This document shows positions 215-41,190 of a stretch of 44,840 bases of DNA, in pieces. A program made the translations under genes and the position numbers. The stretch comes from Candidatus Zipacnadum vermilionense (GTDB lineage: Bacteria; Armatimonadota; Zipacnadia; Zipacnadales; Zipacnadaceae). The notes beneath the pieces were generated by a model, which saw only the letters and a program-made list of their open reading frames with translations, was not told the DNA's origin and made no database searches. The stretch lies in the NCBI GenBank assembly GCA_029821755.1, contig JALGSV010000040.1, forward strand, positions 1-44,840. Reading direction: 5' to 3'. The first letter of the stretch is position 1; each line of letters starts with the position of its first letter.

Positions 215-418
215 AGAGGCGGCCAGCAGTCATCAACCTGCACTTGCCCCGCGCCGGCATCGCCACGCTCTGCCTGTCGGTCAACTTGCGGGCCTGGCCC
301 AACCGCGGCAAGCAAACCGTTCTGGTGCCAAGGTACCCGCTGCCGACGCAGTCAACCGTTCGCGCCCTTGCGAGGATTGGTCCCTAACTACCGCCATTGT
401 TGCCGGAGGTAACCAACC

Positions 419-22372: not shown

Positions 22373-24697
22373 ATGACAACGCATGCTGATACTGCATTGA
22401 GCCAGGGCATGGAGCGGACCACATGGAACGGTGCGTGGATCTGGTCCGAGGAGATTACCGCGGACCGCAACGTTTGCGCGCTTTTTCGGCGGTCATTCAC
22501 CCTCGACTCCTCGGCCGGATTGCGCATCGCCATCACGGCGGACAGCGAGTATGTCCTCTACGTCGATGGCGAATTCGTCGTGCGGGGACCAGCGCGCGCC
22601 CCCCTGGACTACTACCTCTACGATGAGATCGAAGTACCGTTGACGCCGGGCGAGCACTGCCTGGCAGTACTGGTGCATCATGTTGGGGAAGTGAACGCGT
22701 GTATGATGCTGGGCCGCCCCGGGTTGCTGGTGGAGGCCTGCGTCGAGAAGGCCGATCCGCCACTCGATCTCTCGTCAGGGCCGACCTGGCGGTGTTGCCG
22801 CCCCTCCGCGTGGCGCCGGGACCTGCCGTGCTCGATGTCCCATTTTGGCTTCTGGGAGGATTGTGACCTCGCCCAACTCCCCACGGACTGGACGCAGCCG
22901 CATTTTGCAGACGCGGCATGGGAAGCGCCCGTCACTATCGGTACGCCCCCCTGTGCCCCTTGGCAGCGCCTTATCGCGCGTGACATTCCTCTGCCGGCCT
23001 ATTCGAAGAGCCTGCCCGGACTACTTGCTGCCTCCGGCACCTGGAAGGAGATCGTGCCCGACGCGGAGATCCCCTCGGTTCAGGTGGCGGCGCGGGAGCG
23101 CACGCGGCGCGCGGAGACCGTGGACTTCCCCGTAACCTTCTCGTTGCCGCCCACCACACAGGGGGAGTACTTGACCATCGATTTCGGCCGGACGATCTCG
23201 GGGTATGTTGAGGTCGAGATCGCGCAGGCATCCGCCGGTGTGCAACTCGACCTCTCTTACGATGAGATGCTCACGCCGGAGATGGCGGTCAATCCGGAGC
23301 GTAGCTACGCGCACCTCACCGACCGCTACCGGCTTGCCGGCGGGCGCTGCGACCTCCGTCCTGTGCACCCACGTGGCTTTCGTTACGTTACCCTGGACCT
23401 GGCGGGTTCAGGTACTCTCGAGATCGCACGGGTAACGGCGATCGAGGAAACCTACCCCTTTGTGCGCCAGGCCTCCTTCACCGCGCCGGACGACGAACTC
23501 ATGTCTTTCGTGGGAAAGGCAGCAGAAACGGTGCGGATCTGCACCACCGACGCCTTTACCGATTGTCCCACCCGCGAGCGCGTGCAGTGGATGGGAGACC
23601 TGTACATGCATGCGCGCGTCGCTGCCTACACCTTCGGCGACACCCGGATGCTGCGGCATGCCCTCTTCCAGGCGGCCCAAGGCGTCTTGCCGGATGGGCG
23701 TATCAACGGCTTCTTCCCAACGGATCGCGTGAATCTGGGCTGGGCCACCAGCAGCCTGATGTGGCTGCACTTGCTGGTTGATTACTGGCTGCACGCGGGC
23801 GACGAGGATATCCACCGTCTGCTACCCACCGCCGAGCGCCTGTTGGGGTTTCTTGACGTCCAGACCGACGACTCCAGGTTGATCCGCGGCTGGCCCGCCG
23901 GACAGTTCTGGGATTGGGCGCCTATCGAAAACAACGGATGCCTGCTCCTGACCAATGCGGTATATGTGTGGGCACTCGCTCGGCTGACAGAGCATTCCCT
24001 CTTCCGTGATATCTTGGGGGATGATCCGATCGCCCGCATCGACCGTATCCGCCAGGAGGCCCACGCGCGGTTTTGGGATACGTCGCGGCGGTGCTATCGG
24101 GATACTCCGCTGGATGACCCGCGCTCCCCTATCTACAGTCAGCACGCTAATACGCTGGCGGTGCTGGCGGGTATCTGTCCGCGGGAGGAGCAGGCGGCCC
24201 TCTTGCGGCAACTCCTTGACCCGGCTCGACTGGGCCCGGTGCCCGTGGGGGAAGACTCATTGCGAGCAGGGAACCATCCCTCCCCCGACCGTATCGTGCC
24301 CATGGGCACCCTCTGGTTTGGGCATTTCCTCTGCCAGGCGCTCTTCGAGACCGGCCTGGACGAGGAAGCTTTCGCGCAGGTGCGCGCGTACTGGGGCGCC
24401 TATGACCACCTCCCCACTTACCCCGAGACGCGGATCACGCACGGCAATACCGGACACTGTCATGGCTGGGCCGCCGGACCGGCATACCTCTTGCCAGCCT
24501 ACGTGCTGGGCGTGCAACCGGTCGAGTCGGGATGGCGCGCCGTGCGGATTGCCCCGCATCCCGGCGAGTTGACGGAAGCTCAAGGGGTGTTTGCCACTCC
24601 GCGAGGACCGGTGACGGTCGGCTGGACTCGCACCGGGGAAGAGCTCGCCCTCCGAGTCGAGGCGCCGGACGACGTGCGGATCGCGTGCAATTATTGA
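22373..24697 (+). CDS. Alpha-L-rhamnosidase, GH78 family
   Basis: 774 residues, no signal peptide (cytoplasmic), with AGGAATA about 7 bases before ATG 22373. Residues about 15-110 are an N-terminal beta-sandwich (GAWIWSEE, ALFRRSFTL, YVLYVDGEFVVRGPARAPLD). A second beta domain precedes the (alpha/alpha)6 barrel, which carries the family hallmarks DCPTRERVQWMGDLYMHARV (Asp397, Arg401-Glu402, Trp406), GQFWDWAPIENNG (Asp514) and TGHCHGWAAGPAYLLPAYVL (His697). A C-terminal beta-sandwich ends the protein (GPVTVGWTRTGEELALRVEA). GH78 enzymes release terminal alpha-L-rhamnose from oligosaccharides by inversion. The motif order and length fit the family; the catalytic acid/base pair is inferred from position. 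Intracellular location suggests it acts on imported oligosaccharides. Ends in TGA. Confidence 0.9.
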   Translation: MTTHADTALSQGMERTTWNGAWIWSEEITADRNVCALFRRSFTLDSSAGLRIAITADSEYVLYVDGEFVVRGPARAPLDYYLYDEIEVPLTPGEHCLAVLVHHVGEVNACMMLGRPGLLVEACVEKADPPLDLSSGPTWRCCRPSAWRRDLPCSMSHFGFWEDCDLAQLPTDWTQPHFADAAWEAPVTIGTPPCAPWQRLIARDIPLPAYSKSLPGLLAASGTWKEIVPDAEIPSVQVAARERTRRAETVDFPVTFSLPPTTQGEYLTIDFGRTISGYVEVEIAQASAGVQLDLSYDEMLTPEMAVNPERSYAHLTDRYRLAGGRCDLRPVHPRGFRYVTLDLAGSGTLEIARVTAIEETYPFVRQASFTAPDDELMSFVGKAAETVRICTTDAFTDCPTRERVQWMGDLYMHARVAAYTFGDTRMLRHALFQAAQGVLPDGRINGFFPTDRVNLGWATSSLMWLHLLVDYWLHAGDEDIHRLLPTAERLLGFLDVQTDDSRLIRGWPAGQFWDWAPIENNGCLLLTNAVYVWALARLTEHSLFRDILGDDPIARIDRIRQEAHARFWDTSRRCYRDTPLDDPRSPIYSQHANTLAVLAGICPREEQAALLRQLLDPARLGPVPVGEDSLRAGNHPSPDRIVPMGTLWFGHFLCQALFETGLDEEAFAQVRAYWGAYDHLPTYPETRITHGNTGHCHGWAAGPAYLLPAYVLGVQPVESGWRAVRIAPHPGELTEAQGVFATPRGPVTVGWTRTGEELALRVEAPDDVRIACNY

Positions 24698-24809
24698 GTA
24701 GTCCTCAACAGCACGGGGCCTCAATGTGGCCTCCAATCGGGGTTGGCGAGCTCCGGGAATTGCGCACAGAACCTTCGTGAGATGCAATTCAGTGCCCCTC
24801 TATTGTCGT

Positions 24810-24842
24810 TCCAACTGTCCCTGTACTAACATAACAGTTGGA
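24810..24842. terminator. Perfect 9-bp inverted repeat, possible bidirectional terminator or binding site
   Basis: TCCAACTGT (24810-24818) and ACAGTTGGA (24834-24842) are perfect inverse complements with a 15-base spacer. The position between two converging genes fits a terminator, but there is no clear T-run on either side, so a protein-binding site or a transposon end is equally possible. Confidence 0.4.
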
Positions 24843-25027
24843 CCCGATTTTGGGGGCCAGGTCTCCCCACGGATTCACCCGCGCCAGAGCGCTGGGCCGG
24901 CTATAGGGGGGATAGAGAACCCCTGTAGTTTGTCTCGAAATCCAAAGCCACCAGGCCATTCGCGAGACGCATGGGACTACTCCTTGGCCCGCTGAGCGAC
25001 ACGGCTACTCATCTCCGCACGATATGG

Positions 25028-25043
25028 GGAAGCGTACGCTTCC
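25028..25043. repeat. 16-bp perfect palindrome just past a stop codon
   Basis: GGAAGCGTACGCTTCC is perfectly self-complementary and begins 5 bases beyond the TAG of the minus-strand GH99-like gene. As RNA it would give a 6-bp stem with a GUAC loop, a short terminator-like hairpin without T-run; as DNA it could bind a dimeric protein. Confidence 0.45.
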
Positions 25044-25047
25044 GCCG

Positions 25048-26496
25048 CTAGCTACGCGACTTCTCCTGCTGCAGCAGGGACCGTATCGCTGTATCATACG
25101 GTCCCAAGCCAATGTCCTCCGGGAGAAGATCGCGGTGCGGCTCGGGGGCTTCGGTGAGAACCTTCCGTATGGCATCCAGGTAGCCGAAACCGTACTCCTG
25201 GTAGGGCGCGAGGTAGTGCCCCTCACCCCATTCGTTCCAGTTGTCCAGGAGTAGCATCCGACTCCCTAGCTGTCCGGGGGGCAAGGTTGCCATGAAGACG
25301 CGGACCTGACGCAACAGCAACTCGAAGTCCTCCGGCGGAATCTTCCAGATGGATCCCTCATCGTTCCATCCGCTCCACGCCTGCGATACCGTGGGCGCCT
25401 GGGGGATAATGCTCAGGTCCTCGATGCCTTGCATCGCTGCCATTTGGGCAGCAATCGCCTCCGCCGGGGTGGGGTTGTCCGCCACGTGCCAGCAGTAGGC
25501 GAAGGTGTAATCGAGGCCCATCTGTTTCATGATCGATAGCTGCTGGGCGTCGATGTATCGGTTCTCGCCGAGGACATACAGGCCGGTGAACCCGGCCTCA
25601 CGGCAAGCCTCGCGCATCAAGTCGATGGCTTTGGCGGCCCCCGCAACGCTGCCCAGGTCGTCTACCAGGAACTCCGGGCGGTAGATGAACAGGACCGGCC
25701 TGCCATCGACTTGCAGATAGCTCGGGTGGGTGAAGTAGTTCTCGATCCAGAAGGGCAGCAGGTTCTCCGTCAGGTCCCGCTCGTCAGCGATACCGGCCTG
25801 GCCGCGCTCTTGATTTTCCCACATTATGGTGAAGTGCATCCGATCGACGTACCGCGAGCTGAACAGCGCGTCATGGAGGGCCGAGGAGAACCTGGTGGTC
25901 ACCGGTCCACCTTGGCTCGTGCGATACCAGCAGTACACAAAGAAGTCGATGCCATGTTCCACCGCCCAGATTGTCTCCCAGTCGGAGACCTCCGGGTTCT
26001 CCTGGGCATAGAAACCCAGGGCGGGGGTGCGTTCCGGGTGCTTCAGTACATTGTCCCACATGCGTGGCTTATCCGTTTCCCACAAGGGACAGTGGTGAGC
26101 GCCAATCAAGAGCTCGCCGTGCGCGGGTTCCGGCTCTGGAATGTAGGGAACTGGCTCCATCTGGATAGACGGAAGGAAACATAGCCGTAGCGAAGCCGTC
26201 GGCTGTTCCATGCCCTTGGCCTCCAGCGCGAGGTCCAACTGGCAGGCCAGGGCAACGTCTGCTTGCACGGTCCACTTCAGGTCAGCCTCGCTGTTGGGCT
26301 CCAGGCGCACCTGCGGCGGCTGGGCCGCCTCCAGCACAGACACGCCTGCGGGTAGCACCAGCCGCGCTTGCACCTCGACGGCGACGGTGCTGAGGTTCTC
26401 GATGTGGGCAACAACTGTGGTCGGCTGTCCGACCCTATTCAGAGGCCTTTCCAGATAGAAGTTTCTGATGGAAACAACTGGTGAGGTAGTCTGCAC
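25048..26496 (-). CDS. GH99/WbsX-like endo-acting glycoside hydrolase family protein with N-terminal Ig-like domain
   Basis: 482 residues from GTG 26496, with AGGAG about 11 bases upstream; no signal peptide, so cytoplasmic. Residues about 5-100 are an Ig/CARDB-like beta-sandwich (ENLSTVAVEVQARLVLPAGV). The rest is a TIM barrel of the glycosyltransferase-WbsX/GH99-like group: LLIGAHHCPLWETDKPRMWD, ETIWAVEHGIDFFVYCWYRT, YLQVDGRPVLFIYRPEFLVD and the diagnostic DNWNEWGEGHYLAPYQEYGF near residues 420-440. GH99 enzymes cleave internal alpha-mannosidic bonds and use Glu residues in such motifs, but WbsX-like proteins on polysaccharide loci are mostly uncharacterised. It is divergent from the heparinase II/III gene, sharing a 290-base promoter region. 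Function here is inferred: an intracellular glycosidase for oligosaccharides. Confidence 0.8.
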   Translation of the reverse strand: MQTTSPVVSIRNFYLERPLNRVGQPTTVVAHIENLSTVAVEVQARLVLPAGVSVLEAAQPPQVRLEPNSEADLKWTVQADVALACQLDLALEAKGMEQPTASLRLCFLPSIQMEPVPYIPEPEPAHGELLIGAHHCPLWETDKPRMWDNVLKHPERTPALGFYAQENPEVSDWETIWAVEHGIDFFVYCWYRTSQGGPVTTRFSSALHDALFSSRYVDRMHFTIMWENQERGQAGIADERDLTENLLPFWIENYFTHPSYLQVDGRPVLFIYRPEFLVDDLGSVAGAAKAIDLMREACREAGFTGLYVLGENRYIDAQQLSIMKQMGLDYTFAYCWHVADNPTPAEAIAAQMAAMQGIEDLSIIPQAPTVSQAWSGWNDEGSIWKIPPEDFELLLRQVRVFMATLPPGQLGSRMLLLDNWNEWGEGHYLAPYQEYGFGYLDAIRKVLTEAPEPHRDLLPEDIGLGPYDTAIRSLLQQEKSRS

Positions 26497-26786
26497 TCCC
26501 GCTCATTCTCCTGTTGCGCGCCCGGTAATCCGGACGCAGGTCTAACCCATGGCGCGCTCCTTTGCCCCGGGCAGCGTCTGGGCGCTGACACCCGCCTTGA
26601 AAGGTATAGCTCGAGGGCCTAGGGAACTCTTCCTCGCGGAGCGGCGACACCCCTCCCTGCACGGCGGGGCCTCTCCGGCAGTCCGGGGCGCAGGCCCCGT
26701 CGGGAAGAACCGAGAAAGCCGCCGCGCTTGCGGCGCCTCACGGCGCCGGCCTAGCAGCGATTCAACTGTCCCCGAGGAGCGCCCCT
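26497..26786. promoter_or_regulatory. Divergent promoter region with hairpins
   Basis: 290 bases between the two outward-facing starts (GTG 26496 and GTG 26787). It holds a perfect GGCGCC-TCAC-GGCGCC hairpin (26732-26747) with further GC-rich dyads nearby (GGGGCC and GGCCCC around 26667-26700), about 40 bases before the plus-strand start. These could form a leader structure or a binding site. Clear promoter boxes are not seen. Confidence 0.4.
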
Positions 26787-28961
26787 GTGACAATCAGCAA
26801 CGACTCGATGAGCCTCGCCTGGGTCTGTAGGCATCACTCCCTGCGCGTACGGCAACTACTAGCCGCCCTTGATCTCGACCTGCCGGCACTGGGGGCGGTG
26901 CGAGCCGCGGCGGAGACTGCGGACTGGGTCGGAGCTTGCCAAGCGCTGCTGGCCTACTACCGTACCTGTTCCTCAGGAGAGTGGCTCCGTCATGAGCGGG
27001 TAGCTCCTGGCAACGGTCGCGAGGAGAAGGCCGAAAGGATGGCGGACGCCTGCTTCTCTGTACCCGGAGGGAACGTCCAGATCCCGCGCTTGGCGTCGGG
27101 TCGCCTGGACTGGGGATATGTCCCGCCCCAGAGCGGGGGCCAGGAGTGGGTCTATGGTATCAACCGGCATGATCACATGGCCGATTTGCTGGCGGCGTTC
27201 TATGCCACCGGCAACCGTCGCTACGTGCGCAGCCTCAACGACCAACTGTACGACTGGACTGCCTCCGTCGAGTACCCCGACCCGCCTGATACGCACGAAG
27301 GGGCGTGTCCGTGGGGCACTATCCTAGAGGTGGGCCATCGCGCCAAAGCCTGGCCCGCGGTCTTCTATGGGTTGCAGCCGGAGCACGAGTTTGCGCCGGC
27401 CACACGCATCCTGCTGCTGAGTCAGGCCCTCGATCATGCCACCTTCCTGCACCAGTATCACACCGGCGGCAGCAACTGGGTGATCACCGAGATGACCGGC
27501 CTGCTGTCCCTTGCCTGCGCCTGGCCGGAGTTCCGGGAGGCGGCGGCCTGGCGCGAGTTGGCCCTGTCGCTGGCCCAGCAGGAGTTGGCCGGACAGGTGT
27601 ACCCCGACGGCGTGCAGAAGGAACTGAGCAGCAACTACCAGCTCGCGGTGCTGGGACACATGGGTTTCTTCGTGGAGACCGTCCGCGGCGCAGGCCTTCC
27701 TGAAAATCCGGCCCTTACCGCCCTGTTGGAGCACATGTGGAACTACCTGGCCTACTCGCTTTGCCCCAACGGACAAACGCCGCAGAACGGTGATTCCGAC
27801 CGCCCTGGATCCACCGATTCCCAGGTGATTCAGCCGCTCGAGACCTGCCAACCCTTGCTGGACGCGGCCGACGCTTACCGCCGCCAGGACTGGCTCTACA
27901 TCGCCACCAATGGCGCGCGCGGCGAGCAGCCGCCCGGGCTGCCCTCAGTCCTCTTCCCTTGGGCCGGACAACTCATCATGCGCAGCGGCTGGGAGGCCGA
28001 GGCCCATTGGGGCTATTTTGACTTCGGCCCCTGGGGGGTGCTGCACCAACATAACGACGCGCTGCATCTCTCCATCACCGCCTGCGGGCGCGATCTGCTG
28101 GTGGACAGCGGACGGTACACTTATCAGAACTACTGGGGTGAACCGGGCACGTGGCGGAGCTATTTCATCGGCTCGGCCGCCCATAACGTGATCCTGGTCG
28201 ATGGTCTGGGTCAGGCCAACGGCCGCAAGGTCACCGATAAGCCTGTCGAGGCAGATCAAGCGTTCCTCACGCCTGCATACGATTATGCCCAGGGCAGCTA
28301 TACGCATGGCTTTGTCGACGCGGAGACCGCAAGCCTTCGCCACAAGTCCATGATGTATGGCGAGGAGACCTATGCCGAGGTCAAGGGAGACGTGGTTCAC
28401 ACCCGGGCGGTGCTGTACCTGCGCGGCGTGGGGTGGGTGGTGGTGGATCGCCTGGAGACTGACCACCCGTGCCGCGTCACGCCGCTCTGGCACTTCGCCC
28501 CGGAGTGTACGGTCGCCCGCGAGGGACAGGCAGTGGTTACCGTTGACGAGGGGGTGGGGAACCTCCGCCTTCAGCCGGTGGGAACCCTCGACTGGGAGAT
28601 CGAGTTGATCAGCGGGCGGGAGGGGCCCGATTTCCAGGGGTGGTACAGCCCGGGAATGGATGTCAGGCTGCCCAACACCTGCGCCTGCTATTCCGCCGCA
28701 ATCCCACAGACTACTACCCTGGCCTGGCTGCTGCTGCCGGGGAAGGGCCCGGTGTCGGCGGCAGAGCTTACCCTACTGAGCGCGCCGGAAGGAGCGGTGC
28801 ACCTGGTGCTGGCCAGGCCGGGACAAGCGCCTCTTGAGGTGGCCATGAGACTGGACCCCTCCCTTGATCTACGCCTATCGACCGGGGAAGCGTTCGCCGG
28901 CCACTGCGCCGTCCTCTCCGGGGAGAGTCAACTTGGGCAACCTGAGGGAGGCCGGACGTAG
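26787..28961 (+). CDS. Heparinase II/III family polysaccharide lyase
   Basis: 724 residues from GTG 26787, chosen because GAGGAG lies about 7 bases upstream. No signal peptide. Residues about 60-380 are the alpha-toroid: WVYGINRHDHMADLLAAFYA, the Asn-Trp-Val segment SNWVITEMTGLLSLA (about 229) and YPDGVQKELSSNYQ, the Tyr region used by lyases. Residues about 390-650 are the C-terminal beta-sandwich with the classic GVLHQHNDALHLSITACGRD (His420, Asn423, Asp424) and LLVDSGRYTYQNYW, followed by SAAHNVILVDG. These are the residues of PL12/PL21-type enzymes, which break uronic-acid linkages by beta-elimination. It heads a plus-strand run with a GHL-type hydrolase (112 bases downstream) and the PHP-like protein. 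Cytoplasmic location suggests an oligosaccharide lyase. Confidence 0.9.
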   Translation: MTISNDSMSLAWVCRHHSLRVRQLLAALDLDLPALGAVRAAAETADWVGACQALLAYYRTCSSGEWLRHERVAPGNGREEKAERMADACFSVPGGNVQIPRLASGRLDWGYVPPQSGGQEWVYGINRHDHMADLLAAFYATGNRRYVRSLNDQLYDWTASVEYPDPPDTHEGACPWGTILEVGHRAKAWPAVFYGLQPEHEFAPATRILLLSQALDHATFLHQYHTGGSNWVITEMTGLLSLACAWPEFREAAAWRELALSLAQQELAGQVYPDGVQKELSSNYQLAVLGHMGFFVETVRGAGLPENPALTALLEHMWNYLAYSLCPNGQTPQNGDSDRPGSTDSQVIQPLETCQPLLDAADAYRRQDWLYIATNGARGEQPPGLPSVLFPWAGQLIMRSGWEAEAHWGYFDFGPWGVLHQHNDALHLSITACGRDLLVDSGRYTYQNYWGEPGTWRSYFIGSAAHNVILVDGLGQANGRKVTDKPVEADQAFLTPAYDYAQGSYTHGFVDAETASLRHKSMMYGEETYAEVKGDVVHTRAVLYLRGVGWVVVDRLETDHPCRVTPLWHFAPECTVAREGQAVVTVDEGVGNLRLQPVGTLDWEIELISGREGPDFQGWYSPGMDVRLPNTCACYSAAIPQTTTLAWLLLPGKGPVSAAELTLLSAPEGAVHLVLARPGQAPLEVAMRLDPSLDLRLSTGEAFAGHCAVLSGESQLGQPEGGRT

Positions 28962-29073
28962 CCGGTCACGACGGCTGGTCACCGCGGCCCGCGGCGCGTC
29001 CCTGTCTGAGTCCCTCGGCGACGCTGCACAGAACGCCAACGACATATAGAGCGGCAAGAAAGGAAAGCGGAGC

Positions 29074-30135
29074 ATGTTCAAACACATGGCCATGTGGACC
29101 TGGCCGGACGCGGTGCTGGGCGAGACGGCGGAACAGATAGTCGAGCGGCTGCGGGCGGCGCACATCGACATCGTCATCCCCTACCTGGGCTTGCGGGACG
29201 ATCCCGCCCCGCGCGCCGCCTATGAGGAGCGCCTGCAAGCGCTGGTCGAGGAGGCGCACCGCCACGGAATGACGGTGATCGCCTGCTTCGACGAGATGGG
29301 CACCTACGCCTCGATGCCGGCGAAAGACTACTGCCAGGTGCGCCAAGACGGCGAACCGCAAAACCTGCTCTGCCCGGCTCACCCCGGCGCTCGCGAGTAC
29401 CTGCTGGGTGAGTTGGAGCGGGTGCTGGGAGAGTTTGCTTTCGATGGCGTGAACCTGGAAGACAGCTACGTCTACAACTCGACCACCATCTACGATCCGG
29501 CGCACAGCGGTGGGGCCGAGTTCAGCGTCATCCCGGTCTGCTATTGCGATCACTGCCGGGCGCACGCGCCCCTGGAGCAGCCGGAGTGGAACCAGTGGCG
29601 CCGCGACCGTCTATCCGAGCTAGTGGCCGCCGAGTCGCGGCTGGTGCATGAGCGCGGCCTTTCCTTCTCGGTGGCGGCGCGCATGCCCTATGCCCGCGAC
29701 GATTTCTACGCGGCCTACCAGGACGAGATTCCCTATTACTCCGGATGGCAGCACTGCCAGGCTCGCGACGGGCTGGCGGCGGATTGGCTGTCATGGCTGC
29801 AGCAGGGAATCATCGACTTCGCCTGTCCCATGTCCTACTTCCACAGCTCGCGACTGGTGGAGTTGGAGACACTGGAGTGCCAGTACCGCGTGCCGGAGGC
29901 GCGCGAGAGTATCTGGATGGGTCTCGGCCTGGACGTCATCACCGCGGAGTATGCCCAGGCGCACCGCGATCACCCCGAGCCGGGAAAAGTCCACCAGGAC
30001 GCCTTCAAGAACGACGCCGCGGCGATCGGGCGACAGCTCGACTTGCAGGTGCGCTTGGGGCAGCAGCATGTGGTCTTCTTCTCCCACGCCTTCCTACGGG
30101 ACGAGCACATCCCGGTGATGGCTGCATACCGGTAG
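29074..30135 (+). CDS. GHL-type TIM-barrel putative glycoside hydrolase
   Basis: 353 residues, with AAAGGAAAGCGGAGC just before ATG 29074 and no signal peptide. The order of strands fits a beta/alpha barrel: DIVIPYLG at strand 2, HGMTVIACFDEMGTYASMPA, then the strand-4 motif FAFDGVNLEDSYVYN, in which Glu129-Asp130 sit at a typical catalytic position. CYCDHCRAH may bind a metal. Further on are LSFSVAARMPYARDDFYAAY, IIDFACPMSYFHSS and SIWMGLGLDVI. This pattern belongs to the GHL10/DUF4015-like and related hypothetical glycosyl hydrolases found next to heparinases. It lies between the lyase gene and the PHP-like gene with short gaps, so probably one operon. Substrate unknown. Confidence 0.75.
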   Translation: MFKHMAMWTWPDAVLGETAEQIVERLRAAHIDIVIPYLGLRDDPAPRAAYEERLQALVEEAHRHGMTVIACFDEMGTYASMPAKDYCQVRQDGEPQNLLCPAHPGAREYLLGELERVLGEFAFDGVNLEDSYVYNSTTIYDPAHSGGAEFSVIPVCYCDHCRAHAPLEQPEWNQWRRDRLSELVAAESRLVHERGLSFSVAARMPYARDDFYAAYQDEIPYYSGWQHCQARDGLAADWLSWLQQGIIDFACPMSYFHSSRLVELETLECQYRVPEARESIWMGLGLDVITAEYAQAHRDHPEPGKVHQDAFKNDAAAIGRQLDLQVRLGQQHVVFFSHAFLRDEHIPVMAAYR

Positions 30136-30192
30136 CACCGGTGCCCGCCTGAGCAGCGGCCCCGCGCAGCGCACTCCCTGGAGGTTACCTTG

Positions 30193-33561: not shown

Positions 33562-33834
33562 GTCAGAACGGGAAACACGCAGTCCAGCGGGAGCCCTGTC
33601 GCAGTAAGGCCCGCTATTCGTTCGGAGGGAATCCACGACCAATTGCCACCTTCCGTCGCCTGGTGGCAGGGCAGGGCGGGTGCGATGGCGAACGGTACGC
33701 GCCTCTGAGGGACGGTGGCAGGGCCTTAGCACTGGTGCACGCCCCGCTGCTGGGTCCCCAAGGTCGCTAGCCTATGCTTGACTAGTCACAAGAGGGTCGT
33801 GAGGTTCGGTCTCCGGCCCCGGAAGGAGCAACCC

Positions 33835-36800
33835 ATGCCTCACTTTGTTGTAGTCCTGATCGCTCTAGCTGCTCTGCTCTTCATTGCGGCTTCCAACGCT
33901 TGCGGCGCTGAGAAAGCTCTCGTTCTCGAGGAGCGCCTTAACCGCTCCTGGCAGCGCGAATTGGTCACCTATTCCTTCGAGGCCCCCCAGGGCCAATGCT
34001 CGTTCGGCTCAGTGGCTTTGACGGGACCGCAGGGCCCCCAGCCGGTGCAGTACTCCGAAGTGGACTTCTGGCCCGGAACGCAGGCCGTCAGATCCGCCCG
34101 GTTCTCCTTTGTCGTCGCTGAGCTGCCGCCACTGACGAAGTTGACGTACAGCCTGCACTATGCCCCCGAGGCCACCGCCGCCGCCCCGGCTCCCACCATC
34201 CCGGCCGTCGGGGGCCTCCAGCTCGATCAAACGCCCGATTCGGTCGAAGCAGTCAGCGACCGCTTCGGCGCGCGCCTGCTGCTCGGAGCCCAGACCTATG
34301 CTGATCCGGTGGGCTCTGACCAAGTCCCGGGGCCGGTCCGCGCGTTGCGTCTGGCCGACGGCACCTGGTTCGGCGGCAGCCGTCTCTACGGTGAAACTCC
34401 CGTCAAGTCCTGGTCCTCCCGCCTGCTTGACAGCGGCCCCGTCTTCGTCCGCACCGAGACGGTCTACACCTACGCGGATGGCGCCACGCTCACCGTGCGC
34501 TGCCAGCTGGCTGCGGGCGACTATGCTCTCCTCGTGGACATGGAGGTCAGTCAGGACCACCCCGAGGACGGCTGGGAACTGCTACTCAACCAGGGGGTAG
34601 CGATAGCCGGAGGGACCAAGATCAACGGCGCCCGCTACACGACCGATCAGGACGCCTTCACCCTCGATCCCCAGTCCCCCGACCCCGCCTGCTACCTCAA
34701 CCCGTGGCCGGGTGACGGCTGGTTCCCGGACAGCCCCGCGCTAGTGCGTCTGGCGATGCAGAATCGCCCGGAGGAGCTGTATCTCTCGGTGCGGGAGCCG
34801 GGCGCCTGGGCCGAGCCCGACCTGGAGGGACCTTGGATCAACTTCACCAATTGGGTCGCAGGGATGCCCGATACCATGTGGAGTCATGGCTGGAGCACCC
34901 GGCGCCTCCCGATCTACCCCGCCGAGGGGGGCGTGCTCTTGCGCATGAACTTGCTGCACGGCACGCGCAAGTTCACCGTCGGCGCCAACGCCGACCCCGA
35001 GGGTCTGATGGACACCTTCCTGTGCAAAGCCACCGGCTTCCACACCCCCTTGCCCCGCCTAAACGAGGTCAAGGACATGGTCCTTGACTGGCCGGATGGC
35101 CCCCAGAAGCACCCCTTCTTGTTCGCCGATGCCCGGACGCTGGCCGCACTCGGGAACTGGAATGCCGCGGCCTACCAGAACATGCACGACCCTGACAAGC
35201 TCCGGGCCCTGCTCGGTAGGCTGGGCGAGCTCGACTACATGCGCAATATCATCGAGATCGCCGTCCGCTACGATGCCGTGATCGACTCGCCCGACCTGAC
35301 TCCGCAGGAGCGCAAGCTGATCAAGGCGCAGACCGCCTACCTCGGCTACCTGGTGGCTGACCCCTTCCACTGGTCCTACGAGCGCGGCTACTGCTCCGGC
35401 AACCCTAACATGACCGTCTCCCGCTACGTCAACCTGGGCTTCCTGGGTTTCGCCATGCGCGACAACCCCGCCGCCCAAGCGTGGGCGCAGTACGCTGTGG
35501 ACTGGACCAAGTGGTGGCTGGTCAATGTTACCGACGACTCCGGGTCCTGGCCGGAGAGCAGTCACTACGCCCGGGTTTCCTGGATGGACCTGGTGGACTT
35601 GGCTATCATAGCTCGGTACGCCGGCACGTACGACTTCTTGTCCGACCCCAAGTTCAAGCTCATGGCACTGTTCTACGAGAAGACGCTCACTCCGCCGAAT
35701 CCTCTCCGTCGGGTGGCCGTACCCGTGCCCGCCGGTCCCACTGGACCTGCGGCGCCTGCCGGACGCGTAGTCCCCACCTACGGCCGAGGCAACCGGGGCG
35801 ACGTCTGGGGGATCAGCGGCCTGCTGGCCGCCGCTACGGCAGTCACCGACCCCGAATTGTCGCGCACCATGCAGTGGTCCTGGCGCGAGGCGGGCTTCAA
35901 CGAGTTCTTCTCGCACAACACCGCTGGCATGGCCCCGCTCTTTGTCAATCGCTTCCTGCCCGCCGAGGCCCCGGACTGGCGCTCCGAGTTCTACCCCCAT
36001 CTGGGCTATCTCCTCCGCGATCACGTCGGTTCCCCCGAGGAGAACTACCTGCTGTTTGTCTCTCAGTACCAGCGCTCCGCCGACGGCGAGATCTGGCCCC
36101 CCGACACCGGCGCGATCTGCAACTGGTTTGCGCTGGGCCGGCCGCTGGGCGGTTCCTTTGTGCGCGTGCCCGAACTGACCCATACCCTGACCGTCAACCG
36201 CGTTTCCCTCGCCACCAACTGGGACCCCGGCGACGGGCAGGCCACGGCCTCGGCTGGATACGTCACCGATACCATCCATGACGGCTTCGCCCTGCTACCC
36301 GGCGTCGAGTATGTAAGCGCGGGCTTCACCGTCAAGGAGATCGCCGGACACAACCTGTCGCTGCCCGCGGACATGCCGGCCTTCCCCCAACGGGAGAAGA
36401 CCGGACGCGCTCCCTACCAGTGGCAGCGCCAACTTCTGCGCGTGAGCGACAGCCCGGACAGCGCGGCCAACTACCTCGTCCTGCGCGACACTGTCGCCGG
36501 CAACCAACCCACCCAGTGGCAGTTCTGGACGCTGTCGGAGAAGATCGGCACGCCCCAAGAGGTCGCCGATCGCGACGCCTTCCTCGCCGACAAGCCAGGA
36601 AGCAAGATTGCCCCCCTGCGCGAGTTGCGGGGCGATCGCTTTACGGCCCTCGGCCAGTTCGGCGTGGACGTGGACTACTACATCGCCGCCCCCACCGACG
36701 GCCCGCGCTACACCCTGCGCTACGGCCTGCAGGGCGGCGCCTACGGAACCCACGGCTACGACGAGTATCAGGACCTGCTCTACCTCCAGCGCGAGGGTGA

Positions 36801-37269
36801 TGGGGAGTACTTCGTCGTTCTTTACCCACATCCGGCCAGCGAGCCGGCCCCGGCCTTCACCACTCTGGGCAACGGCACGGTCATCAAAGTCGCCAGTCCC
36901 GGCGGGACCGACTACTGCTTCCTGAGTCGCGGGGAGGTCACTACCCAGGCGGAGGCCGCCACCTTCACCGGCACTGCGGCTACGGTGCAGGATCACCCCG
37001 ATCGCCTGGCCCTGGCCCTCGCTGCGCCAGGATCATTGCGCTACCGCGACTTCGCCCTCACTGCGTCCGGGCCTGCCTGGCTGCAGATTTCCCCATACGC
37101 GGCGACCGTGCTGGTGCCCGCGGCCGGCCCCACCCGGGTGACCCTGAGCCTTCCCGACAACTGGCGGCTGGCCGACGGCCAGGCCGGGACTGGACTGAGT
37201 AGGCAAGGGGATGGTTACGTCCTTACCCTCCCCGCCGGCCAGAGCCGGGCAGAACTGCTCAGACAGTAG
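33835..37269 (+). CDS. Large secreted heparinase-like toroid/beta-sandwich protein
   Basis: 1144 residues from ATG 33835, chosen because GGAAGGAG precedes it and a signal peptide follows directly (FVVVLIALAALLFIAASNAC). An N-terminal beta domain (ERLNRSWQRELVTYSFEAPQ) precedes an alpha/alpha toroid containing GYCSGNPNMTVSRYVNLGFL and SGSWPESSHYARVSWMDLVD, where the Tyr and His resemble heparinase lyase residues. The C-terminal sandwich has RSADGEIWPPDTGAICNWFA (about residue 748) where paralogue 5678-9250 has YADHRDANSGNLHIFALG; the equivalent His is missing here, so chemistry may differ or be lost. It is a separate transcription unit or the end of the 26787 operon (273-base gap). Probably a periplasmic or extracellular lyase-like or glycan-binding protein; substrate unknown. 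Confidence 0.75.
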   Translation: MPHFVVVLIALAALLFIAASNACGAEKALVLEERLNRSWQRELVTYSFEAPQGQCSFGSVALTGPQGPQPVQYSEVDFWPGTQAVRSARFSFVVAELPPLTKLTYSLHYAPEATAAAPAPTIPAVGGLQLDQTPDSVEAVSDRFGARLLLGAQTYADPVGSDQVPGPVRALRLADGTWFGGSRLYGETPVKSWSSRLLDSGPVFVRTETVYTYADGATLTVRCQLAAGDYALLVDMEVSQDHPEDGWELLLNQGVAIAGGTKINGARYTTDQDAFTLDPQSPDPACYLNPWPGDGWFPDSPALVRLAMQNRPEELYLSVREPGAWAEPDLEGPWINFTNWVAGMPDTMWSHGWSTRRLPIYPAEGGVLLRMNLLHGTRKFTVGANADPEGLMDTFLCKATGFHTPLPRLNEVKDMVLDWPDGPQKHPFLFADARTLAALGNWNAAAYQNMHDPDKLRALLGRLGELDYMRNIIEIAVRYDAVIDSPDLTPQERKLIKAQTAYLGYLVADPFHWSYERGYCSGNPNMTVSRYVNLGFLGFAMRDNPAAQAWAQYAVDWTKWWLVNVTDDSGSWPESSHYARVSWMDLVDLAIIARYAGTYDFLSDPKFKLMALFYEKTLTPPNPLRRVAVPVPAGPTGPAAPAGRVVPTYGRGNRGDVWGISGLLAAATAVTDPELSRTMQWSWREAGFNEFFSHNTAGMAPLFVNRFLPAEAPDWRSEFYPHLGYLLRDHVGSPEENYLLFVSQYQRSADGEIWPPDTGAICNWFALGRPLGGSFVRVPELTHTLTVNRVSLATNWDPGDGQATASAGYVTDTIHDGFALLPGVEYVSAGFTVKEIAGHNLSLPADMPAFPQREKTGRAPYQWQRQLLRVSDSPDSAANYLVLRDTVAGNQPTQWQFWTLSEKIGTPQEVADRDAFLADKPGSKIAPLRELRGDRFTALGQFGVDVDYYIAAPTDGPRYTLRYGLQGGAYGTHGYDEYQDLLYLQREGDGEYFVVLYPHPASEPAPAFTTLGNGTVIKVASPGGTDYCFLSRGEVTTQAEAATFTGTAATVQDHPDRLALALAAPGSLRYRDFALTASGPAWLQISPYAATVLVPAAGPTRVTLSLPDNWRLADGQAGTGLSRQGDGYVLTLPAGQSRAELLRQ

Positions 37270-37792
37270 GCTCGCACGGGTCCAGCCACGGATCCACACG
37301 ATTAGCCATTCGCGCCCGGCTTCGCACTATCGTCCCCTGGGGCAACCAGTCTATCTCGGCGGGGGTCCCGCCCCCTGGCACTACCGCTAGGGTAACCACC
37401 CAAGAGGGGAGAGTCGCGAAGTCAATAGCCTGCAGTATGTCCCGGGGACGTGAGATCTGGTCCAAGCAAATGACCATGCGATAGCACTTAGTCGGCTGAG
37501 GGCAGTCTCGGTAGGCCCGAATCGTTCCGTCCTCGGCAGCAGAGATCTCATGTAGGCGGAATGGTGAAATTCGCCTACAGCGTACCTCACAAACGGCATG
37601 ACGCCACGCTCCTCGCCGTTCGGTGCGAGAATTGCAGGTCCAACCCTGACGGCCAGCGGCCACTGCGGGGGGGGGCCTTCCCTCGAGGGCAAGCGGCCAT
37701 TGCTGGGCGTCCTGTGGGTTCGTCCCTGCCACGATCACTTGACCACGGCAGGGAGGGCTGGCCCCAAGCTGGCCAGGCAATGGAGGCCCCAC
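37259..37792 (-). CDS. Doubtful unrecognised ORF in a 726-base gap
   Basis: The gap 37270-37995 has no plus-strand gene. On the minus strand a 177-codon frame ends at 37259, inside the last codons of the preceding gene. Its last hundred residues (CYRMVICLDQISRPRDILQA, then FATLPSWVVTLAVVPGGGTP) look protein-like, while the first half is low-complexity. Other frames upstream (for example from about 37923, MVLSVHGLSNHLSG, ending in TGA) also look partly protein-like, as if a gene had decayed by frameshifts. I recognise no family. Treat as a possible gene relic. Confidence 0.25.
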   Translation of the reverse strand: MGPPLPGQLGASPPCRGQVIVAGTNPQDAQQWPLALEGRPPPAVAAGRQGWTCNSRTERRGAWRHAVCEVRCRRISPFRLHEISAAEDGTIRAYRDCPQPTKCYRMVICLDQISRPRDILQAIDFATLPSWVVTLAVVPGGGTPAEIDWLPQGTIVRSRARMANRVDPWLDPCEPTV

Positions 37793-37995
37793 GAAGCGCC
37801 CCGGCTACTGACAAGCTGGGCTCGATAGCGGTGCCCTTGACCGAGGAGGAAGTATCCGCAGTCCCAACGGCGAAGTTCCGTACCAGACAGGTGGTTGCTC
37901 AGCCCATGCACGGAGAGCACCATCTTGACATGAGTAATCTCAGATTACGATAGAGAAGCTCCTCTTCACACGAGCATGACTCCGGAGGAATCGCT

Positions 37996-40900
37996 ATGCG
38001 CGGCCTTATGCGTTCCCTGCTCCTGTCCTCGGTGCTCCTGGGTGTGTTGCCGGTATGGGCCCAGCAGATTGCCGATCCAGTCGATGTCGACTGGAAAGAC
38101 ACCGTTGCCACCTATCAGGCCGAAGCCCTGACGGTCGGCCCCTCGGCGAGGCTGGTGGCGGACGCCCAGGCCCAGGAGGGCAAGGCGGTCGCGGCCGTCA
38201 TCGGGCAGGGGCGGGCCGGACACATCCTCAGCGGCGGGTGGGTGCCGGTGCGGCCCGATCAGAAGTACGAGATCACCTTCCACATGCGGTTCGATGTGAA
38301 GGTGGTCTCCCCAGCGGACACTCCCATGCCCATTTACGTGGGCACCGAGGACAAGGCCGCGTCCTCGCGCTTCGGCTGGCCGCTGCGGCTGGAGGCGGTC
38401 TACAAAGGGAGCGAAAAAGAGGCCGCTGTCTCCGTCATCCACTGGCGCTTTGCCCGCATCAGTGACGTCCAGCAGGCCGGTCAGTATCATGATTACGTCA
38501 TCACCGTTGACACCCCGCCGCCGGGAGTAGTGGGCTTCCGCGCTTACTGGTACGGGCGGGCCTTCGCCTCGGTGTGGATCGACAGTGTGCAGGTCCGTGC
38601 GCTGCCCGCGGTCACCGAGACGGAGGCACTAAAGGACGTGCCCGCGCCCGCTTTCACCATCGACCATGCCCATCCGAAGACGCTGGTGGTGAACGGCGTC
38701 TACCAGTGGACCTACCGCGTGCCCGAGCTGATCGGCGGGCCGTGTGAGGCCGTGTGGCAATTCCCCGCCGACGCGGCGGGGCTGGCGGGCTACGACGCCC
38801 TGGTGCTGGCGGACGTGAACCTGGGCGACTTGAAACCGGCGCAGCGCCTGCTGCTCGCGGGATTCGTCAAGGCCGGCGGCGGACTGCTGGTGCTGGGCGG
38901 CCCCTATGCCTACGGGAAGAGCGCGGTGCACGTCTCGCCGCTGCTGCAGGAGCTGTTGCCGGTGCGGACCGCCGGTCTGTGGGACATCCGTAAGGCACAG
39001 GGCGGCAGTCTGCGTCTCTCTCCCAGTGCCGCCCTGTTGGCACTGGACTGGGCGCAGGACCCGCGCGTCTACTATTACCATGTGGCGACGCCGAAACCGG
39101 GGGCGCAGGTGTGGCTGACCGGGCAAACGCCGAACAGTCGCACGGCGCAGACGCCGCTGCTGGTCGTCGGCCGGCATGGTCAGGGGCAGGTGGCCGCCTT
39201 TCTCATCACTCCCTTCGGCCTTCCGCAAGCAGGAGAGACGCCGCTGTGGGCCTGGCGCGAGTGGGGCGATTTGCTGAACCTGACGCTGAAGACCATCACC
39301 GGCCGCCAGGGGCCGATCCCGGCGCCGGGCTACGTGGCGCCGGAAGTAAAGACGTCACCGCGCCCGCCGGCGCCCGCGGCGCGGCCTCCCGCGCCCGTCG
39401 AGGAGAAGCTGGACGGCGTGGCGGTGCTGAAGGTCTGGCCGGAGAAGCTGTGTGTGCGCCCGGGCGAGTGGGCGAAGGCGACGGTGACCCTCGGCAACGG
39501 CACTGCCGCGGAGGCGCCGGTAAAGCTGGTGGTCACTCTCGACAGTGGCCTGCATGAAACCACCGTGCTGAAGGAGATGGAACTGGTCCTGCCGGCCAAC
39601 ACCCGTCGGGAAATCCCGGTCACCTGGCAGACCGGTAAGGAGGAGGAATGGGGCCGTACGATCACTGCCGAGCTGCGCGCTGCCGACGGCACATCCCTGA
39701 GCCGCCAGTCCGAGGTGTTTACCATCGGCTGGAACAACTACCGTGTAGGGCAGTGCCGGCTGGTGCAGCCGTGGACGTGGGACCAGGGGGCGAAGACCTT
39801 CCCGGCTATCACCCCAGAGGACCGCTGGAGTATCTGGCTGCCCGGCATCCGCGCTGCCTACGCGACGACCACCGAGTACTTCTTCTGGGCGCCGGACGAT
39901 TTCGGCAACTTGCTGCCGGAGAAGGACCAGTGGTTCTCCGGCCAGGCCACTTACCTCATCAGCCAGGAAGACATCCGCGCGGTCATCGACGCCGCCCACG
40001 CGCAGGGCATCGCCGCCGTCACCTACGGCAAGAAATGGTTTAGCGTGAGCGGCCTGCAGGCGGGTCGCGATGGTGTGGAGTTGATCCGCGAGCATCCGGA
40101 GTGGTGCGAGTGGGATGTGAACGGGCACCCGAAGTGGTGGTTCGACGCCGATAAGTATGGCTGGACCCTCGACCAGTGGCGTGATGAAATCGAGAACAAA
40201 GGCAAGCGCAGTATCGGTGGCGCCGCTGTGAACTGCGTGCCGGAGGACTGTGTGCGCTATGGCCTCGACCAGCTCATCCGCTCCGCGAAGAAGTATGGCT
40301 GGGACGGCGTGCGCTTCGACGACCATTTCACCGCCGATGCCGTCTTCGACGGCGGGCTGGCCATGGACGGCGAGACTACTGAGCACGGGCAGGATTACGA
40401 GGCCATCACCGTGCGCAATAACCGCCTCACCCGCGAGGTGACTAGGCAGGTACTGCCGCACTACTTGGTGGGCTTCAACTACGGCGGCACCTATACCGAC
40501 TGGGGCGTGCGCCAGCCGGACGCCTTCGTGGAAACCTGCAAAGACGGCCAGTTCGTGATGATCGAGCACTCCGTCTGGTGGAACAGCCGCACGTGGCCGC
40601 AGGTCATCAACCTGCTGGCGCAGGAGAATCACCGTGTGCAGGCCCTCGGTGGCGTGCCGGGCATGGTCTCCATGAGCGCCAATGAGCATTTGGCCCACCG
40701 CTGGGAGACGGCCATCAACTATGCCAGCCAGGGGCACTACTACAATGTGCGGAACTGTCCGGAGGTGGTGCAGTACACCAAGTTCATGCTACGCTACGGC
40801 GAGGTGCTCTACGACCCCCGGACGCGTTACGAGGAGAACGCCGATTGGGTTTCGGTCACTCCTGCCGACCAGGTCATTTACCGCCCCTTCACCCATCGGC

Positions 40901-41190
40901 GCACACTGGATGCCGCCCACCAGCAGATAGTGGTGAGCCTGCTCAATGACCCTGGTGAGGGCAAAGTGGATGACCTCAAGACCGCCCCGGTCCCGGTGCA
41001 AGAGGCCATGGCGAGCATCACCATCCCGCCGGGGTGGATGGTGGCCCGTGCCTGGCGTCTGAACCCCGATGATCCGGCGCACCCCTGCACACCGATCGCT
41101 GGCGCCATGCGCAACGGCACGCTGGTCCTCACCGTGCCGTCAGTGGAGGTGTGGAACGTGCTGGTGGTAGAGTTGGAGAAGGGGAAGTAA
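37996..41190 (+). CDS. Secreted fusion of amidotransferase-like domain and GH66-like TIM-barrel hydrolase
   Basis: 1064 residues, with GGAGGA about 7 bases before ATG 37996 and a signal peptide (MRSLLLSSVLLGVLPVWAQQ). Residues about 30-200 are a jelly-roll carbohydrate-binding-like domain. Residues about 215-435 are a glutamine-amidotransferase-like fold (YDALVLADVNLGDLKPAQRL, GGGLLVLGGPYAYGKSAV); no Cys-His-Glu triad is visible, so it is probably non-catalytic. A Pro-rich linker (KTSPRPPAPAARPPAP) and an Ig-like domain (about 475-580) lead to the barrel with TTTEYFFWAPDDFGNLLPEK, a strand with TYGKKWFSVSG and WDGVRFDDHF (Asp775-Asp776). GH66 proteins (dextranases and cyclodextran-forming enzymes) show a similar layout, so GH66-like is the best guess, not proven. 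The partial protein at 2-214 shares the amidotransferase-like part. Confidence 0.75.
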   Translation: MRGLMRSLLLSSVLLGVLPVWAQQIADPVDVDWKDTVATYQAEALTVGPSARLVADAQAQEGKAVAAVIGQGRAGHILSGGWVPVRPDQKYEITFHMRFDVKVVSPADTPMPIYVGTEDKAASSRFGWPLRLEAVYKGSEKEAAVSVIHWRFARISDVQQAGQYHDYVITVDTPPPGVVGFRAYWYGRAFASVWIDSVQVRALPAVTETEALKDVPAPAFTIDHAHPKTLVVNGVYQWTYRVPELIGGPCEAVWQFPADAAGLAGYDALVLADVNLGDLKPAQRLLLAGFVKAGGGLLVLGGPYAYGKSAVHVSPLLQELLPVRTAGLWDIRKAQGGSLRLSPSAALLALDWAQDPRVYYYHVATPKPGAQVWLTGQTPNSRTAQTPLLVVGRHGQGQVAAFLITPFGLPQAGETPLWAWREWGDLLNLTLKTITGRQGPIPAPGYVAPEVKTSPRPPAPAARPPAPVEEKLDGVAVLKVWPEKLCVRPGEWAKATVTLGNGTAAEAPVKLVVTLDSGLHETTVLKEMELVLPANTRREIPVTWQTGKEEEWGRTITAELRAADGTSLSRQSEVFTIGWNNYRVGQCRLVQPWTWDQGAKTFPAITPEDRWSIWLPGIRAAYATTTEYFFWAPDDFGNLLPEKDQWFSGQATYLISQEDIRAVIDAAHAQGIAAVTYGKKWFSVSGLQAGRDGVELIREHPEWCEWDVNGHPKWWFDADKYGWTLDQWRDEIENKGKRSIGGAAVNCVPEDCVRYGLDQLIRSAKKYGWDGVRFDDHFTADAVFDGGLAMDGETTEHGQDYEAITVRNNRLTREVTRQVLPHYLVGFNYGGTYTDWGVRQPDAFVETCKDGQFVMIEHSVWWNSRTWPQVINLLAQENHRVQALGGVPGMVSMSANEHLAHRWETAINYASQGHYYNVRNCPEVVQYTKFMLRYGEVLYDPRTRYEENADWVSVTPADQVIYRPFTHRRTLDAAHQQIVVSLLNDPGEGKVDDLKTAPVPVQEAMASITIPPGWMVARAWRLNPDDPAHPCTPIAGAMRNGTLVLTVPSVEVWNVLVVELEKGK

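What the first reader, a model, noticed from the sequence alone, without database searches (positions are those of the whole stretch)
22373..41190. Possible undescribed system for a rhamnose- and uronate-containing glycan
GH78 rhamnosidase, heparinase II/III lyase, GH99-like and GHL hydrolases (all without signal peptides) lie beside secreted ThuA/PHP-like, heparinase-like and GH66-like fusion proteins. There is no transporter, SusC/D pair, sulfatase or regulator in the window, which does not fit known polysaccharide-utilisation-locus layouts. Pairing intracellular small enzymes with very large secreted proteins is the novel feature.
Basis: inference. Interest (0 to 1): 0.5.

Follow-up and report, generated by a model that had tools for sequence, protein, structure and literature searches.

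The report
Mosaic locus of secreted lyase-like families
A stretch of an uncultured bacterium's genome that looked like a new sugar-degrading system is most likely a loose grouping of internal sugar enzymes with single members of two large families of big exported proteins, one resembling enzymes that cut acidic polysaccharides and one of unknown, probably non-enzymatic, function.

Summary
The genes are real, but I found no sign that they form one conserved system. The window is a whole 44,840-bp contig of an Armatimonadota genome. It holds a GH78 rhamnosidase, a WbsX protein, a PL12-like lyase and a GHL10 protein, none with a signal-peptide-like N-terminus, beside three exported-looking proteins of about 1,100 aa. 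The combination recurs in 0 of 57 named loci carrying the ThuA/PHP protein. A same-genus genome keeps the 33778 protein (80% identical) without the upstream neighbours. SusC-type transporters are absent from the whole genome. More interesting is the genome-wide picture: about 40 loci of the 33778 family and 27 of the ThuA/PHP family, about 5% of the genome. The first family has a polysaccharide-lyase fold closest to PL39/PL40. Most copies keep Asn, Tyr and His, but the window's 33778 copy belongs to a clade without the His base and is under purifying selection (dN/dS 0.10). The second is a GIFT/ThuA-like domain fused to a PHP fold without conserved metal ligands; it probably binds rather than cuts.

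The parts
22373..24697 (+). GH78-type alpha-L-rhamnosidase, no signal peptide seen
   Evidence: Pfam PF17389/PF17390/PF05592; best solved relative RhaB 2okx, E 4.8e-76; D397, E402, D409 align with RhaB D567, E572, D579. Fourth acid unresolved: RhaB E841 falls on Gly, and E685 in a TYPE motif lies two columns from the Glu shared by four homologues
25048..26496 (-). WbsX family protein (GH99-like by recall), no signal peptide seen
   Evidence: PF14307 E 6.1e-21
26787..28961 (+). PL12-like heparinase II/III family protein, no signal peptide seen
   Evidence: PF16889 E 9.3e-43, PF07940 E 1.7e-22; 5jmd E 1.7e-21, Asn/Tyr/His aligned
29074..30135 (+). GHL10 hydrolase-like protein, no signal peptide seen
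   Evidence: PF02638 E 5.3e-12; 57% identical protein in L071
30190..33561 (+). Exported-looking GIFT/ThuA-like + degenerate PHP fusion, 1,123 aa
   Evidence: AlphaFold2 pLDDT 90, pTM 0.90; residues ~30-320 match OST48 Z 18.2, ThuA 1t0b Z 13.9; ~390-600 match PHP 2anu Z 18.1; metal-ligand positions not conserved
33778..37269 (+). Exported-looking polysaccharide-lyase-fold protein lacking the His base; likely start 33835
   Evidence: Family profile to PL39 6jp4 E 6.7e-9; fold 6jp4 Z 24.1, 9vtk Z 20.7 (model pLDDT 62); Asn and Tyr kept, Ile at the His position
37996..41190 (+). Exported-looking protein with GATase1-like domain and weak GH66-like match
   Evidence: PF07090 E 3e-7, PF13199 E 0.0088 below cut-off
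5678..9139 (-). Second member of the lyase-fold family, with Asn, Tyr and His; the family match runs to 9199 through a TAG
   Evidence: (C41:5681-9199, 1 TAG)
413..2342 (+). Broken second copy of the ThuA/PHP gene
   Evidence: C41:413-697 and 723-1847, stops inside

Best explanation
The stretch is a mosaic, not a dedicated conserved system. In an Armatimonadota genome, cytoplasmic enzymes likely to act on rhamnose- and uronate-containing oligosaccharides (GH78, PL12-like, WbsX, GHL10) lie next to single members of two large, dispersed families of exported ~1,100-aa proteins. Family 1 ('33778 family') has an N-terminal part like PL26 and a toroid plus beta-sandwich like PL39/PL40. Copies with Asn/Tyr/His most likely cleave uronate polymers by beta-elimination outside the cell (Tyr as acid, His as base). 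The copy at 33778-37269 belongs to a clade with Asn and Tyr (mostly) but without the His, and most likely binds such polymers or uses another base. Family 2 (GIFT/ThuA-like + degenerate PHP) most likely is a non-catalytic exported glycan- or surface-binding protein. Products would enter by ABC importers encoded elsewhere and be finished by scattered cytoplasmic enzymes. Shown: gene content, copy numbers, fold resemblance, residue patterns, lack of synteny, purifying selection on the His-less gene. Inferred: export, activity, substrate, binding role, uptake route.
For: Dispersal: 40 merged loci of family 1 and 27 near-full loci of family 2 in one genome, 222,329 bp together. Their nearness to each other is not significant: 8 of 27 within 10 kb, 4.5 expected, p 0.06. 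Synteny: 0 of 57 named loci repeat the combination; G001 has the 33778 protein without the upstream neighbours. Lyase fold. Own paralogues: Asn 35 of 37, Tyr 35 of 37, His 29 of the 35 rows with a letter there; 28 rows have all three. The His-less rows form one clade, 8 of 8 rows, SH-aLRT 100 (quick tree), plus one long-branch row elsewhere. The roles of Tyr239/His405 in PL39 Dp0100 and of Asn245/Tyr305/His485 in PL40 Uly1040 are published (passages of PMC8286568, and PMC12915356). Purifying selection: dN/dS 0.10 over 654 codons. Degenerate PHP: first ligand position Gly in 35 of 35, second His in 9 of 35, the His after 'TD/TE' in 1 of 35. DHDPS-type aldolases near two family-1 genes (C69 in the own genome, C143 in G001) and an Fe-ADH at C69 fit uronate catabolism. 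ABC import: C88 has SBP, permeases and GH29 and a WbsX relative.
Against: The gaps 28961/29074, 30135/30190 and 33561/33778 on one strand (about 50-270 bp) would fit an operon PL12-GHL10-ThuA/PHP-33778, which would argue for joint function here. In the close ThuA/PHP subclade (about 50% identity) the own copies on C41, C70 and C77 and L070 do have a family-1 gene within 10 kb, though L067 and L068 do not. The family-1 model is poor (pLDDT 62), so the missing His rests on a sequence alignment. No GH88/GH105 was found in the genome, a gap for a lyase pathway. G001 is only 79% complete. No expression or activity data exist.
Confidence: 0.6

Rival explanations
1. A genuine, lineage-specific operon (PL12, GHL10, ThuA/PHP, 33778, perhaps GH78 and 37996) for one rhamnose- and uronate-rich glycan, assembled recently so that relatives do not show it.
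For: Co-directional genes with gaps of about 50-270 bp; GH78 closest among solved structures to RhaB, recalled as a gellan-pathway enzyme; fold match of 33778 to the PL40 ulvan lyase.
Against: The ortholog of 33778 in G001 lacks the upstream neighbours; 0 of 57 named loci share the set; GH78, WbsX and PL12 have lower GC3 (0.77-0.79) than the median 0.86 of 224 own ORFs sampled, hinting at separate origin, though they lie only at the 8th-12th percentile.
Confidence: 0.2
2. The exported families are not for feeding: they are surface or matrix proteins (adhesion, envelope polysaccharide remodelling, self-recognition) built from enzyme folds and diversified by gene birth and death.
For: Lost metal ligands in the PHP fold; lost His in one lyase-fold clade with a member under purifying selection; broken copies in the genome; dispersed genes.
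Against: 28 of the 35 own lyase-fold rows with a letter at the His position have Asn, Tyr and His together; aldolase and dehydrogenase neighbours at C69.
Confidence: 0.2
3. Family 1 are uronate C5-epimerases rather than lyases; this superfamily fold also occurs in dermatan sulfate epimerase 1.
For: 6hzn (DS-epi1) matches the model with Z 15.4 over 532 residues.
Against: PL39 and PL40 lyases match better (Z 24.1, 20.7); catabolic aldolases lie near two members.
Confidence: 0.08

Closest known systems
PL39 alginate lyase Dp0100 (6jp4) and PL40 ulvan lyase Uly1040 (9vtk)
   Same: Toroid plus beta-sandwich over ~560-600 residues; aligned Tyr (Tyr239 of Dp0100) and, in most paralogues, the His base (His405)
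   Different: 12-13% identity; extra ~400-residue N-terminal part; the window's 33778 copy lacks the His; substrate unknown
PL26 exo-rhamnogalacturonan lyase from Penicillium chrysogenum (5xqg)
   Same: N-terminal part of 33778 matches it (Z 13.4 over 300 residues)
   Different: The lyase part resembles PL39/PL40 instead; no PDB sequence match to it
GIFT-fold proteins OST48 and IFT52; ThuA-like proteins
   Same: Fold of residues ~30-320 of the ThuA/PHP protein (Z 18.2, 16.9, 13.9)
   Different: Exported-looking, fused to a PHP fold and beta domains; no Pfam ThuA match
PHP metal-dependent phosphoesterases (TM0559, 2anu)
   Same: Fold of residues ~390-600 (Z 18.1)
   Different: Metal-ligand motif not conserved
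RhaB, GH78 rhamnosidase (2okx; recalled as Bacillus sp. GL1, gellan pathway)
   Same: E 4.8e-76; three catalytic acids conserved
   Different: Fourth acid unresolved; no GH88 in the genome
Bacteroidota polysaccharide-utilisation loci
   Same: Secreted and intracellular glycan enzymes side by side
   Different: No TonB plug domain in the genome, no conserved locus

Membership tests
SusC/D-type polysaccharide-utilisation locus | SusC-type TonB-dependent transporter | tested here: not met
   PF07715: 0 matches in the genome; control rings in 3 of 14 genomes
SusC/D-type polysaccharide-utilisation locus | Gene set conserved as a unit across relatives | tested here: not met
   0 of 57 named loci share the set, many cut by contig ends; G001 ortholog without the upstream neighbours
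GH78 | Bac_rhamnosid domains over the curated cut-off | tested here: met
GH78 | Acids matching RhaB D567, E572, D579 | tested here: met
   D397, E402, D409
GH78 | Fourth acid (RhaB E841) | tested here: inconclusive
   phmmer places Gly there; E685 of a TYPE motif lies two columns from the Glu shared by L136, L138, L139 and L142 (six homologues aligned, two of them garbled)
PL12-like heparinase (26787-28961) | Hepar_II_III domains over the cut-off and Asn/Tyr/His | tested here: met
   that these three are the catalytic residues is recalled
PL12-like heparinase (26787-28961) | CAZy assignment and activity on heparan sulfate | not testable with these tools
   no CAZy library; NCBIfam HepC models score 78-97 bits against cut-offs of 600-700
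PL39/PL40 lyase (33778-37269) | Toroid plus beta-sandwich fold | tested here: met
   Z 24.1 and 20.7, on a model of pLDDT 62
PL39/PL40 lyase (33778-37269) | Catalytic Tyr and an Asn near the neutralising position | tested here: met
   Y597, N544
PL39/PL40 lyase (33778-37269) | Catalytic His base | tested here: not met
   Ile at the aligned position; 8 of 8 rows of the clade lack His. Not filed as a lyase
PHP metallo-phosphoesterase (30190-33561) | Metal-ligand His/Asp motifs | tested here: not met
   Gly in 35 of 35 at the first ligand, His in 9 of 35 at the second (the window's own row has that His); PF02811 below cut-off
ThuA / GIFT fold (30190-33561) | Fold | tested here: met
   Z 13.9 ThuA, 18.2 OST48
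GH66 (37996-41190) | GH66 profile over the cut-off | tested here: inconclusive
   E 0.0088, 15.1 bits against 23.7
GH99 (25048-26496) | GH99 activity or profile | not tested
   Only the WbsX profile was matched; the GH99 link is recalled

The most novel reading that the evidence does not exclude
In phyla without SusC/D, GIFT-pseudo-PHP proteins and His-less lyase-fold proteins act as a large repertoire of non-catalytic, exported glycan-binding proteins that, with dozens of divergent active lyase paralogues of the same fold, replace locus-encoded capture by a dispersed, mix-and-match system for uronate polymers.
Probability: 0.15. Interest if true: 0.75.

Novelty: new variant of a known kind. 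Interest (0 to 1): 0.42.

Why it matters
If right, one 4.4-Mb Armatimonadota genome carries about 40 loci of a divergent lyase-fold family that the Pfam and NCBIfam models I ran barely recognise, and 27 copies of a GIFT-pseudo-PHP fusion. This would enlarge the reservoir of candidate polysaccharide lyases and show a dispersed, non-locus way to organise glycan breakdown. It also warns against reading a single contig as a utilisation locus.

Tried and rejected
Reading the seven genes as a conserved system: rejected on synteny. Co-localisation of the two exported families: 3 of 27 within 2 kb (2.4 expected, p 0.42), 6 of 27 within 5 kb (3.2, p 0.10), 8 of 27 within 10 kb (4.5, p 0.06), 9 of 27 within 20 kb (6.3, p 0.16); not significant, so not claimed.

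Neighbouring transporters: the contig ends at the window ends. Genome-wide there are 8 BPD_transp_1 domains on 4 contigs.

GATase catalysis in the ThuA-like part: no column of residues 30-320 has Cys in 12 or more of the 35 rows.

A conserved fourth acid in the GH78: I first read it as conserved; checking the alignment shows E685 two columns away from the homologues' Glu, so it is now given as unresolved.

Copy-number comparison with relatives: one search scored at most 12 candidates per genome, so counts are lower bounds. It shows strong matches (at least 280 bits) only in G000, G001 and G003 of 61 genomes; add family members in G061, G070 and G076, which one search did not include.

Rows dropped: 19 short rows of 67 and 14 of 44 (fragments or broken copies) before the counts; the merging was done by hand. 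The tree left out 2 truncated own rows and 6 duplicate rows of 53.

Gene neighbourhoods of the 25 own ThuA/PHP loci were judged from first residues and window matches only; some neighbours look like housekeeping genes by eye, but they were not annotated.

Literature: searches. I saw only the listed best papers (15 of 357, 4 of 4, 15 of 107, 8 of 101, 2 of 2, 10 of 74, 10 of 72) with starts of abstracts; none of those is about these families in Armatimonadota. Passages were read in PMC10290634, PMC12915356, PMC7904915 and PMC8286568. This library lacks most subscription papers.

C-terminal beta domains of the ThuA/PHP protein (about 610-1122) were barely tested by the fold search, so no claim is made about them.
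Full report
What is there. The window equals contig C41 (44,840 bp) of a 4.39-Mb assembly in 115 contigs, 95.4% complete and 1.5% contaminated. The phylum is therefore Armatimonadota, and the class is probably Zipacnadia (inference; the class is described in PMC10290634, passages seen).

The seven genes of the finding exist as described. The four at 22373-30135 have no strongly hydrophobic N-terminus; the three at 30190-41190 do. In the GH78, D397, E402 and D409 align with RhaB D567, E572 and D579. The fourth acid is unresolved: phmmer puts Gly opposite RhaB E841, and E685, in a TYPE motif like the homologues' T-x-P/W-E, lies two columns from the Glu that four of the six aligned homologues share (the other two rows are garbled and a seventh locus gave no usable ORF). 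The PL12-like protein has Asn, Tyr and His aligned with BT4657 (the catalytic roles are recalled).

Is it a system? I tested this three ways. First, I scanned genome contigs with a profile of the ThuA/PHP protein: 57 loci, mainly titled Armatimonadetes/Armatimonadota, Lentisphaerae, Verrucomicrobia, Planctomycetota, Kiritimatiellia or uncultured bacterium. In these the family of 33778-37269 occurs in 8 of 57, the GATase/GH66 protein in 5, GHL10 in 2, GH78 in 1, PL12 in 1 and WbsX in 0; no locus repeats the combination, though many loci are cut by contig ends. Second, the same-genus genome G001 (79% complete) has an 80%-identical 33778 protein but no other window gene in the 8.6 kb upstream, its contig ending inside the gene, and no genome-wide match to the GH78 or the PL12 protein. 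Third, in the window's own genome the two exported families are not significantly close: 8 of 27 ThuA/PHP genes have a family-1 gene within 10 kb, with 4.5 expected and p 0.06 in 5,000 random placements. Against this, the closest ThuA/PHP relatives (about 50% identity) on C70 and C77 and in L070 do have a family-1 gene within 10 kb, while L067 and L068 do not. The absence of SusC/D says nothing about the locus, because no TonB plug domain was found in the genome. Its few ABC permease domains (8) include a set with a solute-binding protein and an alpha-L-fucosidase and a WbsX relative on C88, and it has 13 sulfatases. A GH88/GH105 enzyme was not found.

What the large proteins are. A profile of the 33778 family (16 sequences) finds the alginate lyase Dp0100 (6jp4, E 6.7e-9), BT4657 heparinase III, an oligoalginate lyase and exoHep in the PDB. 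The AlphaFold2 model of 33835-37269 is poor (pLDDT 62, 8 sequences). Even so, the fold comparison is clear: Dp0100 Z 24.1 over 601 residues, PL40 ulvan lyase Z 20.7 over 562, and the N-terminal part like PL26 (Z 13.4 over 300). The published roles are Tyr239 as likely acid and His405 as likely base in Dp0100 (PMC8286568, passage), and Asn245, Tyr305 and His485 in Uly1040 (PMC12915356, passages). In my alignment His405 falls on the family's conserved His and Tyr239 on its Tyr. Of 37 own-genome paralogues covering at least 600 model positions, Asn is kept in 35 of 37, Tyr in 35 of 37 and His in 29 of the 35 with a letter there; 28 have all three. The window's 5678-9139 copy has all three; the 33778 copy has Ile in place of His. 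In a tree of 45 rows (quick method), 8 His-less rows including 33778 form one clade with SH-aLRT 100, and one further His-less row sits on a long branch elsewhere. Two of the eight (L065 and the C112 copy) also have His instead of the Tyr, and L091 has Asp instead of the Asn. Between 33778 and its G001 ortholog dN/dS is 0.10 with dS 1.07 over 654 codons (the G001 contig ends before the His position), so the gene is maintained. The paralogues mix with rows from Verrucomicrobiota and other Armatimonadota in the tree, so the expansion is not simply a recent tandem burst.

The ThuA/PHP protein gave a confident model (pLDDT 90, pTM 0.90). Residues about 30-320 have the GIFT/ThuA fold (OST48 Z 18.2, IFT52 16.9, ThuA 13.9), residues about 390-600 the PHP fold (TM0559 Z 18.1), and the rest is beta-rich and barely tested. 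The name GIFT for this fold group is recalled. In 35 sequences the first PHP ligand position is Gly in 35, the second is His in 9 (the window's own row among them), and the His of the 'TDH' motif occurs in 1. Two Cys columns are nearly invariant (445 in 35 of 35, 710 in 34 of 35) and none with 12 or more Cys lies in the ThuA-like part. I infer a non-catalytic exported protein.

Numbers. One search gave 67 match rows for family 1 and one search gave 44 for the ThuA/PHP family. After merging pieces by hand and dropping 19 and 14 short or broken rows, 40 and 27 loci remain, 222,329 bp or 5.1% of the genome. The window itself carries a broken second ThuA/PHP copy at 413-2342. Comparison with other genomes is limited, because one search scored only 12 candidates per genome; strong family-1 matches there were confined to G000, G001 and G003 of 61.

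How it most likely works. Full-set family-1 proteins would cleave uronate polymers outside the cell. His-less copies and ThuA/PHP proteins would bind. Products would enter by ABC importers encoded elsewhere, and scattered cytoplasmic enzymes such as those at 22373-30135 would finish the job. DHDPS-type aldolases near family-1 genes on C69 and in G001 C143, with an iron alcohol dehydrogenase on C69, fit release of unsaturated uronates. Every activity statement is inference.

Verdict. The finding is a correct list of genes with an over-read interpretation. The part worth following is the unnamed, much-expanded lyase-fold family and the GIFT-pseudo-PHP fusion, not the locus.

Noticed in passing
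window 413-2342: Broken second copy of the ThuA/PHP gene, with stops inside; the own genome also has a broken copy on C53 about 380-386 kb.
   Followed up: partly
window 5678-9199: The family-1 copy with Asn, Tyr and His has a TAG before its N-terminus, so the ORF starting at 9139 lacks a signal peptide; possible truncation or sequence error.
   Followed up: no
window 11686-11868 and 21463-21876: Fragments: one of family 1 with two TAG, one of the SGL-type protein at 17338-20832 (36% identical).
   Followed up: no
window 9303-11483: Member of a third repeated family of exported-looking proteins; relatives beside ThuA/PHP genes in L155, L157 and L161.
   Followed up: no
window 41320-43173: 617-aa protein with no Pfam match and no signal peptide seen; a 24% identical relative in L146.
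   Followed up: no
L128 (own genome C88): Solute-binding protein, a 626-aa ORF with two permease domains, alpha-L-fucosidase and a WbsX relative together: the clearest sugar importer locus I saw in the genome.
   Followed up: partly
L031:2-8410: Open frame of 2,803 aa beside a ThuA/PHP gene in G001.
   Followed up: no
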